The notes under the pieces are model-generated. The model was not told where the DNA came from. It was given only the letters and a program-made list of their open reading frames with translations, and ran no database searches. This document shows, in pieces, positions 5,473 through 9,693 of a stretch of 40,292 nucleotides of DNA. Position 1 is the first letter of the stretch. Every line of letters begins with the position of its first letter. The stretch is from a virus. Position numbers and translations under genes: made by a program. Where the stretch lies: IMG/VR virus record IMGVR_UViG_3300043449_000557, positions 1 through 40,292 of that record. One strand, given 5' to 3'.

Positions 5473-5965
5473 GGTTAAAAAACCTTCTGGCGATTATGTC
5501 TATGACTTTAGCGGCCCGATGTTCGATCTTTATAAAGCGCCTCGCGATGAAACGGCAGAAGAAAAAAGCCGCCGTTTGTTAAACCGACGGATGGCGCTTG
5601 ACGAAGCCGCAGGAACATTTACCCCGGACTATCCTACGGCTAACGATCCTTACCGCACGCAAAATTACATGGCTATAGCCGATACGGCAAGCGCTTTAGG
5701 CATTCCTATGCCAGCGCCAGTCGCAGGGCTTGGCGGTATGTATGGGCAGCAGCAGGCGGCCGATTTTGTGGCGGCCAATCCGGTGCCCAATCGGCTTGGC
5801 ATACAGGTCATGTCGCCGCAGGACGCGCTGGCGATGCGTCAGCGTCAGGCGCAGGCCATGCGGTCTATTCAGGGGTCAGCGCCTATCTTATCGCCGCGGG
5901 GATTTGAGCCAACGGTTGTAAGCGACGGGATATTCAATCGCTTGAAGGCGATGCTAGGCTACTAA
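5471..5965 (+). CDS. Hypothetical protein (164 aa), possible virion-associated
   Basis: The frame opens with MVKKPSGDYVYDFSGPMFDL, has a charged helix near residues 25-45 and then a Gln/Ala/Met-rich C-terminal half (GGMYGQQQAADF, ALAMRQRQAQAMRS). That composition resembles phage internal or structural proteins, but no domain is recognised. There is no clear ribosome binding site, and the start overlaps that of the divergent gene at 5472. It is an isolated plus-strand gene among minus-strand genes, and its stop abuts the U-tract of the minus-strand terminator at 5964-5990. Confidence 0.6.
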   Translation: MVKKPSGDYVYDFSGPMFDLYKAPRDETAEEKSRRLLNRRMALDEAAGTFTPDYPTANDPYRTQNYMAIADTASALGIPMPAPVAGLGGMYGQQQAADFVAANPVPNRLGIQVMSPQDALAMRQRQAQAMRSIQGSAPILSPRGFEPTVVSDGIFNRLKAMLGY

Positions 5966-5990
5966 AAAAGAAGGCCGGCTTGCGCCGGCC
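5964..5990 (-). terminator. Rho-independent terminator of the leftward operon
   Basis: Read on the minus strand, a perfect 7-bp stem GGCCGGC/GCCGGCC with a 4-base loop is followed by TTCTTTTTT. It lies 48 bases beyond the stop of the gene at 6038 and ends the leftward small-gene operon. On the plus strand the hairpin has no following T run. Confidence 0.85.
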
Positions 5991-6037
5991 AGTCACCATA
6001 GGGAGGAAACGACACAGAAAGCCGTGTCAAAACCTTT

Positions 6038-6238: not shown

Positions 6239-6303
6239 TTTAGCCCCAACACTATTTCGATTATTACCGCCAATAAGATTGCCATTGCTTCACCGATTTT
6301 CAT
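6235..6303 (-). CDS. Tiny membrane peptide (22 aa)
   Basis: The reading frame ATG 6303 to TGA 6235 encodes MKIGEAMAILLAVIIEIVLG plus LK. It is almost entirely one hydrophobic helix with a charged cap, long enough to cross the inner membrane once. Its start overlaps the end of the DnaA-like gene by 14 bases, and its stop overlaps the next ATG. It sits in a chain of overlapping genes with no spare room, which supports it being real. Confidence 0.55.
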   Translation of the reverse strand: MKIGEAMAILLAVIIEIVLGLK

Positions 6304-6535
6304 AGCGTTTGATCCCGTGCATGATGGTCGTGTGGTCGCGGCCCCCTAGCACTTGTCCGATTAGCTGGAGCGGCGCGTTCAGCTCGTGCCTGGCGCGCCA
6401 CATAATCTCGAACCGTGGCCAGATGACCCCTTTGCGGCGGTTGTGGCCGGTGAGAGCCGCGGTTGATATGTTATGATTCCGGGCTGTTTCCTCGATCAGC
6501 TCCCGAATCTCTTCGATCATCTCTTGCTTTTGCAT
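6290..6535 (-). CDS. Stand-alone DnaA domain IV-like DNA-binding protein (81 aa)
   Basis: Residues about 31-78 match the C-terminal DNA-binding domain (domain IV) of the bacterial initiator DnaA. A basic region RRKGVIWPRFEIMWRAR is followed by APLQLIGQVLGGRDHTTIMH, which includes the DnaA signature GRDHTT at 65-70. The first 30 residues are a charged helix. The AAA+ ATPase domain (domain III) and domains I-II are absent. Domain IV binds the DnaA box TTATCCACA. The operon leaders and the region at 8691-8699 carry such boxes, so this protein may bind them. It could act as an initiator helper, a competitor of host DnaA or a regulator. Confidence 0.85.
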   Translation of the reverse strand: MQKQEMIEEIRELIEETARNHNISTAALTGHNRRKGVIWPRFEIMWRARHELNAPLQLIGQVLGGRDHTTIMHGIKRYENR

Positions 6536-6719
6536 GTTTTAGACTCTTGAACATGAAATTGAGCGCGTGCGCCGCCGTGACGACAGAACGCTCGTCAGCG
6601 TAGGGCGCATGAATTTTCATTATGAGCGAGCCGTCGCGCCGATGCAGCGACAGCCCCTCCCCAACCTTCCAACGGGTCAAGACCCCTCCGGGTTGCGTGT
6701 CGAGATCAAGCCGGAGCAT
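6471..6719 (-). CDS. Hypothetical protein (82 aa)
   Basis: The product begins MLRLDLDTQPGGVLTRWKVG and continues with short beta-type segments (GLSLHRRDGSLIMKIH), a helix (AAHALNFMFKSLK) and a low-complexity, Asp/Arg-rich end. The last 65 bases overlap the DnaA-like gene in another frame, so the C-terminal tail is probably a read-through of noncoding frame. The start overlaps the previous gene by 14 bases. No family is recognised. Confidence 0.5.
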   Translation of the reverse strand: MLRLDLDTQPGGVLTRWKVGEGLSLHRRDGSLIMKIHAPYADERSVVTAAHALNFMFKSLKHAKARDDRRDSGADRGNSPES

Positions 6720-6858
6720 GACCGCGCTTCTCTAATTCGTTCTGGATGATCTTGGCGCGGTAATCGTCCTGCTCTGTCTCTAACAGGATGTTAAGCGCCT
6801 CATCTGACAGCCAATGCAAGAGCTGGCTAAATTCAAAATAATCTTTCATGCGTGACAT
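6706..6858 (-). CDS. Small acidic helical protein (50 aa)
   Basis: ATG 6858 to TGA 6706 encodes MSRMKDYFEFSQLLHWLSDE, followed by a second acidic helix and KRGHAPA. The start overlaps the stop of the upstream membrane peptide (TAATG). A GGGAGG ribosome binding site lies about 7 bases upstream, preceded by a degenerate copy of the TAACATATCCAC leader motif. Function unknown. Confidence 0.6.
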   Translation of the reverse strand: MSRMKDYFEFSQLLHWLSDEALNILLETEQDDYRAKIIQNELEKRGHAPA

Positions 6859-6953
6859 TATAGGCCTCCCAGTAGATATGTTACGAATAAGGCGAGCGCG
6901 GGGACGGCAAGCGCGGCCCCCAGCGCAAAGGCGATTAGGTCAGTTTTGTTCAT
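6858..6953 (-). CDS. Small membrane peptide (31 aa)
   Basis: ATG 6953 to TAA 6858 encodes MNKTDLIAFALGAALAVPAL and then ALFVTYLLGGL. Apart from the first five residues it is one long hydrophobic stretch, so it is probably a single-pass membrane peptide. It overlaps the end of the upstream gene by 14 bases and the next ATG by one. Function unknown; it is one of two such peptides in this operon. Confidence 0.6.
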   Translation of the reverse strand: MNKTDLIAFALGAALAVPALALFVTYLLGGL

Positions 6954-7248
6954 AGTCGTCTATGCAGGCTTGAATGACATGGTCATCGGATTGTATGGCC
7001 GCCTCAACCGCCAAGAATAGCGGATGCGTCTGTTCTATGCAGCGGTCAGGCTCTTTAGCCTTGTCGGCGCTTATCGTCAGATGCTCCAGCTCTATGTCGT
7101 ATGGGCCGGCGTCGTCGCCCGTGTCGCGGTCGCGCCCCTCCCATTTGTAAGAGATGGTCGCCACGCCATAGGCGTATATCGCCATCCCCGGCCACGGCTG
7201 GAACTCGTCTAGCTCATATTCAATATGGTAGGTCACGGGTTGCTCCAT
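6940..7248 (-). CDS. Hypothetical protein (102 aa)
   Basis: The acidic product starts MEQPVTYHIEYELDEFQPWP and has alternating hydrophobic segments suggesting beta strands (YAYGVATISYKWEG, YDIELEHLTIS), then a C-terminal helix ending DDYEQN. No membrane segment or catalytic motif is seen. It overlaps the gene upstream by 16 bases and the one downstream by 14. No family recognised. Confidence 0.7.
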   Translation of the reverse strand: MEQPVTYHIEYELDEFQPWPGMAIYAYGVATISYKWEGRDRDTGDDAGPYDIELEHLTISADKAKEPDRCIEQTHPLFLAVEAAIQSDDHVIQACIDDYEQN

Positions 7249-7397
7249 TGTTCGGTCCAGTATTCTTCGGCAGCGTTGTCGTAAACGTCGCGCAGCGTTA
7301 GCAGCGCGTCGCTTAGATAGATGGATTTATTTGGGAGGCGGGATAACAGCTCGATTAGCTCTTCTATCGCTTTGGCTTCCAGCTCTAATTCAATCAT
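7233..7397 (-). CDS. Small acidic helical protein (54 aa)
   Basis: ATG 7397 to TGA 7233 encodes MIELELEAKAIEELIELLSR and a second helix ending WTEQWSNP. It is acidic and probably forms a two-helix coiled structure. The start overlaps the TGA of the 153-aa gene upstream (ATGA). Function unknown. Confidence 0.65.
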   Translation of the reverse strand: MIELELEAKAIEELIELLSRLPNKSIYLSDALLTLRDVYDNAAEEYWTEQWSNP

Positions 7398-7855
7398 AGC
7401 GTAACCCTCAAAAACTGGCGTGCAATCATCTCGGCATTGTCCAGCGATGCGATGGACGCCGCTAGAGACAGCGACAAGCCAAAGCGCGCTAGGAACGTCG
7501 CCAACTCATCTTGCGGCACTTTGGCGATGATGGCCGCCGCTTGTTCTAGCTTTGCTTTGGGAACGCGTTTGCGCGGTATAGCCGGCGCTTGTTCTGTCTT
7601 GGCTGGTTTTTCGGTCTTTGGCCAGCGATACACGCCGTCTGTTTTGGTTGCTTCGGCCAAGATGACCGAACGTAGCTTGTCATTGTAAATGCCGAACCGT
7701 GCCTCATAGGCTTTTTGTTCTTTTGATTTGTAGTTGCGAGCGCTCCCGCCGCGCACACGAATGCTTGCGCCTTCTTGCGTGAACACGTTACCGTGACCGA
7801 TATTCAACATTGGGCCTTCCCATTTGCTTTCGCACCATGCTTTTAAGTTTGTCAT
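7394..7855 (-). CDS. Hypothetical protein with basic linker (153 aa)
   Basis: Residues 1-65 form a compact, probably folded part (MTNLKAWCESKWEGPMLNIG). A Lys/Pro-rich linker follows (KTEKPAKTEQAPAIPRKR), then a helical C-terminal domain (AIIAKVPQDELATFLARFGL). The gene follows a terminator directly and starts 11 bases after a TAACATATCCACA-type leader whose CACAAGGA also supplies the ribosome binding site. No domain is recognised. Confidence 0.7.
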   Translation of the reverse strand: MTNLKAWCESKWEGPMLNIGHGNVFTQEGASIRVRGGSARNYKSKEQKAYEARFGIYNDKLRSVILAEATKTDGVYRWPKTEKPAKTEQAPAIPRKRVPKAKLEQAAAIIAKVPQDELATFLARFGLSLSLAASIASLDNAEMIARQFLRVTL

Positions 7856-7866
7856 GTCGCTATTCC

Positions 7867-7879
7867 TTGTGGATATGTT
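7867..7879 (-). promoter_or_regulatory. DnaA-box-like leader motif, copy at 7.87 kb
   Basis: On the minus strand this reads CAACATATCCACA, one base from the shared TAACATATCCACA. Its ATATCCACA part is one base from the DnaA box TTATCCACA. It lies 11 bases before the ATG at 7855 and directly after a terminator. Confidence 0.55.
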
Positions 7880-7880
7880 G

Positions 7881-7914
7881 CAAAAGAAAAGGCGACGCCA
7901 TTGCTAGCGCCGCC
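7881..7914 (-). terminator. Rho-independent terminator within the leftward operon
   Basis: On the minus strand a stem AGGCGGCGC/GCGTCGCCT (one mismatch) with an 8-base loop is followed by TTTTCTTTT. It lies 6 bases beyond the stop of the DUF7249-like gene. Only about 25 bases then remain before the next ATG. Confidence 0.8.
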
Positions 7915-7919
7915 TGTTA

Positions 7920-8183
7920 TTATGCGTCTTCTAATGTTTGAATTAAATGGCCGGCGATTTCATACCAGTTGACATCGGCCATGAACGCCAGCGCATAGTC
8001 TGCCGCTAGCCCCTCGCCGACGTCACCAGTCACCAGTTCTTCGGCAAAGTCTTTTAGCTGTTTCGACATCTCATATTGGTCATCTGTCTTGAACCATTCG
8101 CGCGGTTCGATCCCGTCGAACATTTCCAGATTGACGCGCCACGTCGCGTAGTTTGTCCAGCCGTTATAAGTTGTATCAGTCAT
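7920..8183 (-). CDS. DUF7249-like phage protein (87 aa)
   Basis: The N-terminus contains NGWTNYATWRVNLEMFDG, the hallmark of a small protein family common in phages and annotated as DUF7249. The rest is acidic and helical and ends HLIQTLEDA. The biochemical role of the family is unknown. AGAGGAG lies before the start, with the shared TAACATATCCACA leader 18 bases upstream of the ATG. A terminator follows the gene. Confidence 0.8.
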   Translation of the reverse strand: MTDTTYNGWTNYATWRVNLEMFDGIEPREWFKTDDQYEMSKQLKDFAEELVTGDVGEGLAADYALAFMADVNWYEIAGHLIQTLEDA

Positions 8184-8201
8184 CGTCGTCTCCTCTTACG
8201 G

Positions 8202-8214
8202 TGTGGATATGTTA
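8202..8214 (-). promoter_or_regulatory. DnaA-box-like leader motif, copy at 8.20 kb
   Basis: On the minus strand this is TAACATATCCACA. Its TAA is also the stop codon of the 37-aa gene upstream. The ATG at 8183 follows after 18 bases. Confidence 0.6.
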
Positions 8215-8325
8215 CCACTTAAACCACGCCCATGCGTCATGGATTATGTCAGCCTCCGTGCCGTTCGGGCGGCCAAAGGCAGCGTAAAGCGCGGCGCTAT
8301 ATTCTTCGTCGGTCATGTCAGTCAT
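8212..8325 (-). CDS. Small hypothetical protein (37 aa)
   Basis: ATG 8325 to TAA 8212 encodes MTDMTDEEYSAALYAAFGRP and then an acidic, Trp-rich end (DAWAWFKW). An AAAGGGG ribosome binding site and the shared leader motif lie upstream. The frame fills the space between two repeats of the leader and ends inside one of them. No family recognised. Confidence 0.6.
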   Translation of the reverse strand: MTDMTDEEYSAALYAAFGRPNGTEADIIHDAWAWFKW

Positions 8326-8344
8326 CGTCTTGGCCCCTTTGTTG

Positions 8345-8357
8345 TGTGGATATGTTA
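8345..8357 (-). promoter_or_regulatory. DnaA-box-like leader motif, copy at 8.35 kb
   Basis: On the minus strand this is TAACATATCCACA; the TAA is the stop codon of the 96-aa gene upstream. The next ATG (8325) follows after 19 bases. Confidence 0.6.
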
Positions 8358-8645
8358 TATGTTGATTGTTACTTTGGCAAGAAAGCCGCTTTCGTCGACG
8401 GTGACGTTCGCGGGTATTTCATGCAGCTTGATATACTCTTTCACGCCCGCTTCCTTTAGCGCGCGCTTGATCATGCCGCCGAACATATCGCTGTTAGCGT
8501 ATGACCTATACTTGGCGTGGTTGCGGAATGCCGCCATGTCGCAGTGACGGCGCTCTATTGCCGGCACTTTGATCCAACGCCACGCGGGCGTTTCGTCGGC
8601 GTTGTATATTGTCTCTACTTTGGCTTTGAAGCTGATGGTTGGCAT
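8355..8645 (-). CDS. Hypothetical protein (96 aa)
   Basis: This is the first gene of the leftward operon. It encodes MPTISFKAKVETIYNADETP, a basic middle part (ERRHCDMAAFRNHAKYRSY) and a beta-type C-terminus ending KVTINI. The start has AAGGGG upstream and the shared leader motif 18 bases before the ATG. It lies immediately beside the candidate origin region. No domain is recognised. Confidence 0.7.
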   Translation of the reverse strand: MPTISFKAKVETIYNADETPAWRWIKVPAIERRHCDMAAFRNHAKYRSYANSDMFGGMIKRALKEAGVKEYIKLHEIPANVTVDESGFLAKVTINI

Positions 8646-8663
8646 TGTCTTTGCCCCTTACAT

Positions 8664-8676
8664 TGTGGATATGTTA
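8664..8676 (-). promoter_or_regulatory. DnaA-box-like leader motif, copy at 8.67 kb
   Basis: On the minus strand this is TAACATATCCACA, 18 bases before the ATG at 8645. It is the first copy in the transcript of the leftward operon. Confidence 0.6.
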
Positions 8677-8690
8677 TCTTTGCGCTGATT

Positions 8691-8699
8691 TGTGGATAA
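8691..8699 (-). promoter_or_regulatory. Perfect DnaA box
   Basis: The bases TGTGGATAA are the exact reverse complement of the consensus DnaA box TTATCCACA. The site lies at the edge of the iteron region, 15 bases from the leader motif at 8664-8676. The same phage encodes a DnaA domain IV protein. Confidence 0.65.
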
Positions 8700-8716
8700 C
8701 GTCAAGAAGTTTTTTG

Positions 8717-8728
8717 CGGATCGTCGAA
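8717..8728 (-). repeat. Inverted partial iteron
   Basis: CGGATCGTCGAA is the exact reverse complement of TTCGACGATCCG at 8889-8900, which overlaps the first iteron. Further inverted fragments are GAATCGTCGGACGAC at 8739-8753 and ATCGTCATGA at 8791-8800. Confidence 0.6.
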
Positions 8729-8805
8729 AATAGTTGTCGAATCGTCGGACGACATGGCGCTGAAGGCGAGGCGCTGCTTGAAAACGTCATATCGTCATGA
8801 GAGTT

Positions 8806-8834
8806 GTTATAAGGAGTTTTAGAATAAATGTAAA
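8806..8834 (-). promoter_or_regulatory. Sigma70-type promoter for the leftward operon
   Basis: On the minus strand TTTACA (8834-8829) and TATAAC (8811-8806) are separated by 17 bases, each five of six matches to consensus. Transcription would begin near 8799 and run through the inverted repeats and the DnaA box before reaching the gene at 8645. Proteins bound there could therefore control the operon. Confidence 0.55.
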
Positions 8835-8891
8835 CATAATAGTATAGGGACTGCAAAAAGATTTGAGCGACCAAAATCGCCATGGCGATTC

Positions 8892-8906
8892 GACGATCCG
8901 ACGTTT
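8892..8906 (+). repeat. Iteron 1
   Basis: GACGATCCGACGTTT, a 15-base direct repeat found three times without mismatch in this region. Confidence 0.8.
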
Positions 8907-8958
8907 TTTGCCCCGCGCCGTCCAGGCGCAAACATTCTGCATGAACCTGCGTCGTCAT

Positions 8959-8973
8959 GACGATCCGACGTTT
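8959..8973 (+). repeat. Iteron 2
   Basis: Second exact copy of the 15-mer; the preceding TCAT is close to the CAT before iteron 3. It starts 67 bases after iteron 1. Confidence 0.8.
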
Positions 8974-9005
8974 TGCTGGCGCTTGTCGCGACCTTCTCAT
9001 CGCAT

Positions 9006-9020
9006 GACGATCCGACGTTT
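9006..9020 (+). repeat. Iteron 3
   Basis: Third exact copy of the 15-mer, 47 bases after iteron 2. Confidence 0.8.
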
Positions 9021-9213: not shown

Positions 9214-9693
9214 ATGAAACTAATAACTCAAGCCGAACTTAAAGAATGTTTACGCATTAACCCGGAAACAGGCGAATGCTTTAGCCTTAAAGGTCGTTTA
9301 TTAGGCTCAAAAACTTGGAACGGATATTTGCGCACTGTTGTAAAACGCCGCGAATACAAGCTGCATAGGCTTGTTTGGCTATGGGTTCATGGCGAACATG
9401 TGCCGGAGAACATGACTATTGACCACATAAACGGTGTCAAAACCGACAATCGAATCAGTAATCTGCGCGTAGTCACGCAGCTACAAAACACATATTTTCA
9501 CCACGGCGACAGCGACATGCGGAATATCTATAAAGAAGGCGATAGATATTGCGTGGAAATGCTGTATTTTGGCAAACGCATTCGAAGACGGGCAGCCACC
9601 CTAGAGCGAGCTAAACGTGTAAGAGACGAAATGTATTCGGTTTATCCGCCGTTACGCGACCGCGCAAATCTAGGCTCCGCCAATGACATTTGA
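9214..9693 (+). CDS. HNH endonuclease (159 aa)
   Basis: Residues 51-84 carry the HNH core: HRLVWLWVHG, then IDHINGVKTDNRISNLR with Asp70-His71, Asn74, Asn79 and Asn83. This is the phage HNH_3 type. The C-terminal part (RRRAATLERAKRVRDEMY) resembles the AP2-like DNA-binding end of such enzymes. It would nick or cut DNA, and related genes beside terminase can be homing elements or packaging helpers. The gene is visibly more AT-rich than the terminase genes after it, suggesting separate acquisition. It is probably read from a leaderless transcript. Its stop overlaps the start of the next gene. Confidence 0.88.
   Translation: MKLITQAELKECLRINPETGECFSLKGRLLGSKTWNGYLRTVVKRREYKLHRLVWLWVHGEHVPENMTIDHINGVKTDNRISNLRVVTQLQNTYFHHGDSDMRNIYKEGDRYCVEMLYFGKRIRRRAATLERAKRVRDEMYSVYPPLRDRANLGSANDI

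What the first reader, a model, noticed from the sequence alone, without database searches (positions are those of the whole stretch)
6290..8699. Possible autoregulatory circuit: mini-DnaA protein and DnaA-like boxes
The leader motif contains ATATCCACA, one base from the DnaA box TTATCCACA. A perfect box is at 8691-8699, between the operon's promoter and its first gene. The operon itself encodes the DnaA domain IV protein. A protein that binds these sites could control its own operon and the origin at once. I do not know of a described phage system of this exact form.
Basis: inference. Interest (0 to 1): 0.75.

Follow-up and report, generated by a model that had tools for sequence, protein, structure and literature searches.

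The report
Phage mini-DnaA with matching leader operators
A freshwater-type phage family carries a stand-alone copy of the DNA-gripping end of the bacterial replication starter DnaA, and the operon that makes it has DnaA-box-like sites in its promoter and in front of several of its genes, which change along with the protein; this looks like a self-regulating gene switch built from a replication protein.

Summary
The sites are real and far beyond chance: four exact ATATCCACA copies (0.19 expected), all inside the 13-mer TAACATATCCACA, on the operon strand just before ribosome sites. The box 8691-8699 is one chance-level hit alone, but in relatives TATCCACA recurs directly after the -35 hexamer, so it lies inside the promoter rather than after it. 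The 81-aa protein is a DnaA domain IV and retains the residues I hold to contact DnaA-box bases. In related phages site and protein type change together (A TAACATATCCACA, B TAACAAATC[CA]ACA, D TAACRTATWCACA, E TAACYTATCMACA). Thirty terminase relatives lacking a mini-DnaA have no site. All 29 contigs with the two-box promoter belong to this family, and all 14 long enough to check carry a mini-DnaA. This supports an autoregulatory operator circuit run by the phage protein. Control of the origin is not supported: the repeats presumed to mark the origin contain no boxes and change while the boxes stay constant. Binding, the sign of regulation (repression most likely) and the role of the internal sites are inferred. 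Closest analogues: DnaA autorepression, GafY/GafA, mycobacteriophage stoperators and start-associated sequences. New variant of a known kind.

The parts
6290..6535 (-). mini-DnaA, 81 aa, stand-alone DnaA domain IV (proposed regulator), last gene of the operon
   Evidence: Pfam Bac_DnaA_C 7e-16; AlphaFold model pLDDT 94.6, Foldseek match to 1j1v (DnaA domain IV on DnaA-box DNA) rmsd 0.8 A over 71 columns; R33, D67, H68, T69, H73 align with E. coli R399, D433, H434, T435, H439
8700..8705 (-). -35 hexamer TTGACG of the operon promoter
   Evidence: sequence; same position in relatives as TTGACR
8691..8699 (-). promoter box (box 1), TTATCCACA, in the spacer directly after -35
   Evidence: conserved core TATCCACA in 13 of 19 distinct A-type leaders
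8676..8682 (-). weak -10 region (CAAAGAT in the window; TATAAC, TATAAA, TAATGT in relatives)
   Evidence: sequence, spacing 16-18 nt from -35; inference
8664..8676 (-). leader box 2, TAACATATCCACA, immediately downstream of -10, before gene 8355-8645
   Evidence: 26-27 bp from box 1 in relatives
8355..8645 (-). first gene of the operon, 96 aa, no family match; its stop TAA is the TAA of the next box
8345..8357 (-). leader box, TAACATATCCACA
8212..8326 (-). 37-aa ORF between two leader boxes; its stop TAA is the TAA of the next box
   Evidence: sequence; in-frame stop counted
8202..8214 (-). leader box, TAACATATCCACA
7920..8183 (-). 87-aa gene, DUF7249
7890..7915 (-). intrinsic-terminator-like hairpin (11 pairs) with T-rich tail, directly before the next leader box
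   Evidence: similar hairpins before boxes in relatives
7868..7880 (-). leader box, CAACATATCCACA
7394..7855 (-). 153-aa operon gene
6871..6883 (-). diverged leader box TAACATATCTACT at the end of a 31-aa membrane ORF, before the 50-aa gene 6706-6858
   Evidence: conserved in relatives
6706..6858 (-). 50-aa protein found in every subfamily along with the mini-DnaA; no family match
6461..6473 (-). near-match TAACATATCAACC inside the mini-DnaA gene (possible weak intragenic site)
   Evidence: coding constraint not excluded

Best explanation
The mini-DnaA is a phage transcription regulator made from a DnaA DNA-binding domain. It binds, probably as a monomer, a directional 13-bp site (TAAC + DnaA-box-like ATATCCACA). 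One box in the -35/-10 spacer and one at the presumed start of transcription would let it shut off the leftward operon that encodes it: negative autoregulation, probably turning off early genes as the protein accumulates. The same site in front of internal genes probably lets it damp transcription (or translation) gene by gene. Shown here: the sites, their positions and orientation, the predicted fold, and the co-change of site and protein type. Inferred: binding, repression rather than activation, and the action at internal sites.
For: Exact sites far beyond chance. In 16 long A-type loci 36 sites lie in the operon, sense strand, with 0 antisense and 0 in 206 kb elsewhere; across loci 83 sense, 0 antisense. 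Promoter: TTGACR-N-TATCCACA-...-10-TAACATATCCACA layout in 13 of 19 distinct A-type first-gene leaders. The promoter box, which should not be transcribed, shares the octamer TATCCACA with the leaders, so recognition is probably of DNA. Site sequence follows mini-DnaA subtype: the motif label needs 4 changes on the mini-DnaA tree (the minimum for five labels) and 5 on the terminase tree. L017, with terminase only 74% like the window's but mini-DnaA 90%, keeps the A site; L197, whose terminase groups with B phages, has another mini-DnaA and no B site. No site in 30 terminase relatives without a mini-DnaA. All 29 contigs with the two-box promoter are of this family and 14 of 14 with enough sequence encode the mini-DnaA. 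Base-contact positions retained and fold matches DnaA domain IV on DNA. The mini-DnaA is the only operon protein with a DNA-binding-domain match that occurs in all subfamilies.
Against: No binding, expression or infection data. Site and protein sit in one linked module, so co-change could reflect another module gene, such as the 50-aa protein also present everywhere. The -10 of the window promoter is weak, so activation is not excluded. Six of 19 distinct A-type leaders lack box 1. In B phages the promoter box (TTATCCCCA) differs from the leader site. C-type phages lack a clear repeated leader site, and L197, L199 and L203 have none that I found. Many contigs are near-copies, so counts are not independent.
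Confidence: 0.68

Rival explanations
1. Host DnaA, not the phage protein, binds the boxes and ties the operon to the host replication cycle.
For: Box 1 in the window is an exact DnaA consensus; DnaA is a known autorepressor and transcription factor (PMC8203912).
Against: Leader boxes prefer A at the first position (ATATCCACA), not the consensus T; B-type sites AAATC[CA]ACA depart from the DnaA box; site type follows the phage protein; relatives without the mini-DnaA have no sites.
Confidence: 0.1
2. Internal leader sites act on mRNA: a translational operator or enhancer next to the Shine-Dalgarno sequence.
For: Sites are only on the sense strand and sit 0-1 nt from the SD in 31 of 33 B-type leaders with an assigned start, 0-12 nt in most A-type.
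Against: The same octamer lies in the promoter spacer, which should not be transcribed, in A-type phages; the best candidate binder is a DNA-binding domain; compact intergenic space alone would place sites next to the SD.
Confidence: 0.15
3. The leader sites are recombination or module junctions that let operon genes be shuffled, with little regulatory role.
For: Operon gene content varies between close relatives; the site often contains the stop codon of an upstream ORF (8 of 39 A, 16 of 35 B), making gene-box cassettes.
Against: Does not explain box 1 in the promoter spacer, the box at the presumed transcription start, or the co-change with the mini-DnaA.
Confidence: 0.05
4. The mini-DnaA mainly blocks host replication by competing with DnaA at oriC; operon sites only keep its level in check.
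For: It keeps the residues I hold to contact DnaA-box bases and lacks the AAA+ and helicase-loading domains, so it could act as a dominant negative at TTATCCACA boxes (inference).
Against: Subfamilies B, D and E changed contact residues and sites, unlikely if the fixed host oriC were the main target; no host data.
Confidence: 0.12
5. The mini-DnaA is the phage replication initiator acting at the adjacent repeats.
For: Iteron-like repeats lie beside the promoter.
Against: The repeats hold no boxes and differ completely among phages with the same mini-DnaA type and boxes; the protein lacks an ATPase domain; the phage has its own primase-like protein and polymerase.
Confidence: 0.05

Closest known systems
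DnaA autoregulation of the dnaA promoter (E. coli and others; PMC8203912)
   Same: DnaA box in the promoter region of the gene for the binding protein; DNA recognition by domain IV
   Different: Here only domain IV, no ATPase; sites also in front of internal genes; site sequence has diverged with the protein
GafY / GafA, regulators of gene transfer agents (PMC9632790, PMC9638019)
   Same: DnaA-domain-IV-like DNA-binding protein used as a transcription factor in a phage-derived system; stand-alone version (GafY) exists
   Different: GafY/GafA are activators working with GafZ or RNA polymerase omega; no start-associated array of DnaA-like boxes is described in the passages read
Cluster A mycobacteriophage repressor with operators and stoperators (L5, TipsytheTRex; PMC9283540)
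   Same: Asymmetric 13-bp site, in promoters and short intergenic spaces, orientation matching transcription, bound by a monomer
   Different: Unrelated two-domain repressor maintaining lysogeny with more than twenty sites over the genome; here sites are confined to one operon and no integrase was found among the proteins scanned
Start-associated sequences of cluster K mycobacteriophages (PMC3203893)
   Same: Asymmetric 13-bp sequence, mostly in one orientation, immediately upstream of gene starts
   Different: Different sequence, includes the ribosome site, binder unknown; here a candidate binder and a promoter copy exist

Membership tests
DnaA domain IV (Bac_DnaA_C, PF08299) | Sequence match above the curated cut-off | tested here: met
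   58.5 bits against 31.5
DnaA domain IV (Bac_DnaA_C, PF08299) | Fold of domain IV | tested here: met
   AlphaFold model pLDDT 94.6; 1j1v rmsd 0.8 A
DnaA domain IV (Bac_DnaA_C, PF08299) | Base-contact residues R399, D433, H434, T435, H439 | tested here: met
   All five aligned and identical in the window protein; the contact list is partly from own knowledge, R399 and T435 also in PMC9638019
DnaA replication initiator (full protein) | AAA+ ATPase domain and N-terminal domain | tested here: not met
   81 aa, domain IV only
Stoperator-type repressor system | Asymmetric sites, single orientation with transcription, in promoter and intergenic spaces | tested here: met
Stoperator-type repressor system | Sites distributed across the genome | tested here: not met
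   36 in operon, 0 elsewhere in 206 kb
Stoperator-type repressor system | Repressor of the L5/TipsytheTRex family | tested here: not met
   Sequence and fold searches give DnaA domain IV only
Stoperator-type repressor system | Bound repressor halts RNA polymerase elongation | not testable with these tools
   Needs in vitro transcription
GafY/GafA regulators | DnaA-like HTH in a phage-derived transcription factor | tested here: inconclusive
   DnaA-like HTH met (PMC9632790); that the phage protein is a transcription factor is inferred only
GafY/GafA regulators | Partner or C-terminal sigma-like region (GafZ, DUF6456) | tested here: not met
   Mini-DnaA has no further domain; a larger DnaA_C protein with extra C-terminal sequence exists in some relatives but was not found in the window
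Self-repressing operator circuit | Regulator binds the promoter of its own operon | tested here: inconclusive
   Boxes in promoter shown; binding not testable here

The most novel reading that the evidence does not exclude
A replication-initiator DNA-binding domain has been turned into a monomeric phage repressor that reads a directional 13-bp site at its own promoter and at the start of single genes along its operon, with protein and site having diverged together into several specificities within one phage family: a stoperator-like regulon of independent origin.
Probability: 0.4. Interest if true: 0.75.

Novelty: new variant of a known kind. Interest (0 to 1): 0.62.

Why it matters
If true, it shows how one of the most conserved bacterial DNA-binding domains, whose box varies little across bacteria, can change specificity once freed from chromosome replication, and gives matched natural protein-site pairs to study that. 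It would also suggest what start-associated sites in phages can be for, and offer an independent case of orientation-dependent, gene-by-gene repression.

Tried and rejected
Motif as -10 element or internal promoter: TAACAT resembles a -10, but in B phages it is TAACAA, losing the most conserved T, and no -35 lies at the right distance in most internal leaders. Rfam element in the leaders: none; one weak sub-threshold mmgR hit elsewhere. Distant stand-alone DnaA_C proteins in other phages (L037-L072): a count of DnaA-box-like words around them showed no clear excess, so no extension beyond this family. A residue-base link within B phages (base 9 A with H439/T435, C with Y439/S435; 17:3 against 5:11, Fisher p 0.0017) is suggestive but not corrected for descent.

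Full report
Observation. The window is a 40.3-kb virus record with P22-like portal, coat and head-closure proteins and its own family A polymerase and primase-like protein. No integrase turned up among the roughly 30 proteins scanned. A leftward operon of small genes runs from about 8645 to 6290. ATATCCACA occurs four times, always within (T/C)AACATATCCACA, on the operon strand, 12-19 nt before start codons in the window; chance predicts 0.19. The exact DnaA box at 8691-8699 would not be significant alone.

The protein. ORF 6290-6535 is an 81-residue DnaA domain IV. The best solved relative is E. coli domain IV on DnaA-box DNA, and the predicted model overlays it at 0.8 A. Positions equivalent to R399, D433, H434, T435 and H439, which I hold from knowledge of that structure to contact bases, are all kept; R399 and T435 are also named as DNA contacts in PMC9638019.

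Relatives. Thirty-five IMG/VR contigs encode the same protein at 75-98% identity. In nearly all, the 13-mer recurs before genes that themselves differ. The column profile over 49 distinct sites is close to invariant for TAAC.TATC.AC (sites were chosen as at most 2 mismatches from the consensus, so this profile is partly by construction). Sites are in the sense orientation only (83 to 0) and confined to the operon (36 to 0 in 206 kb).

Promoter anatomy. In front of the first gene most distinct A-type leaders show TTGACR, one base, TATCCACA, then a variable stretch, a -10-like hexamer and TAACATATCCACA, with the two octamers 26-27 bp apart. Sequences between the elements differ, so the elements are what is kept. 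B and C subfamilies keep the layout with changed boxes.

Co-change of site and protein. Terminase relatives fall into mini-DnaA subtypes. A: TAACATATCCACA. B (about 30% identical to the window protein): TAACAAATC[CA]ACA. D (recognition helix RDHTGIMHG): TAACRTATWCACA. E (RDHTT[VI]MYG): TAACYTATCMACA. The label fits the mini-DnaA tree with the minimum of 4 changes and the terminase tree with 5, a modest difference driven by L017 and the B/C phages. Thirty relatives with no mini-DnaA of this family and at least 5 kb of flank have no site. A scan of all viral contigs for the two-box promoter gave 29, all of this family, and all 14 with enough sequence encode the protein. Only the mini-DnaA and a 50-aa protein recur in every subfamily's operon upstream of and including the regulator, and only the first has a DNA-binding-domain match.

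Mechanism. Boxes flanking the -10 would block RNA polymerase, so negative autoregulation is the simplest reading; the sign is inferred. Internal boxes sit between the stop codon of one gene and the ribosome site of the next, sometimes overlapping the stop, and in A phages some follow a terminator-like hairpin. That fits a roadblock that works in one direction, as stoperators do (PMC9283540), or a translational effect; I cannot separate these. DNA recognition is favoured because the shared octamer also lies in the promoter spacer, which should not be transcribed.

Origin. The 8720-9020 region has iteron-like repeats, but relatives with the same mini-DnaA type carry quite different repeats there, and the boxes stay only in the promoter. 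Joint control of operon and origin is therefore not supported.

Known systems. DnaA represses its own gene through a box (PMC8203912). GafY, a domain IV homologue, and GafA are transcription factors of gene transfer agents (PMC9632790, PMC9638019). Stoperators and start-associated sequences share the site geometry (PMC9283540, PMC3203893). I found no paper in the library on a phage domain-IV-only autoregulator with start-associated boxes; the library lacks most subscription journals. Verdict: real, well supported as a protein-site system, mechanism inferred; a new variant assembled from known kinds.

Noticed in passing
L002, L007, L008, L012, L015, L019, L020, L029, L036 (opposite strand to the mini-DnaA): A second, about 195-230-aa protein with a DnaA_C domain in the middle and further C-terminal sequence, layout reminiscent of GafA; not found in the window.
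   Followed up: partly
window 8720-9020 and the same place in relatives: Iteron-like repeats (GACGATCCGACGTTTT in the window; ATAGTCATA, GCATAAACCG, TTAGGGCAA, GTTTATGTAAAC types in relatives) that change independently of the boxes; the binder is unknown.
   Followed up: partly
window 7890-7915: Terminator-like hairpin directly before a leader box; similar hairpins precede boxes in many A-type relatives, raising the question how downstream genes are expressed.
   Followed up: partly
window 6461-6473: Near-match to the leader site inside the mini-DnaA gene; the codons CAT AAC are used in 22 of 22 relatives, more uniform than most codons, but the middle codons vary.
   Followed up: partly
window 6706-6858: 50-aa protein of unknown function conserved in the operons of all subfamilies together with the mini-DnaA; possible partner.
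   Followed up: no
window 9214-9693: HNH homing-type endonuclease gene between the repeat region and the small-terminase-like gene.
   Followed up: no
window 5958-6029: Weak sub-threshold Rfam match to mmgR/suhB overlapping a terminator-like hairpin; probably chance.
   Followed up: no
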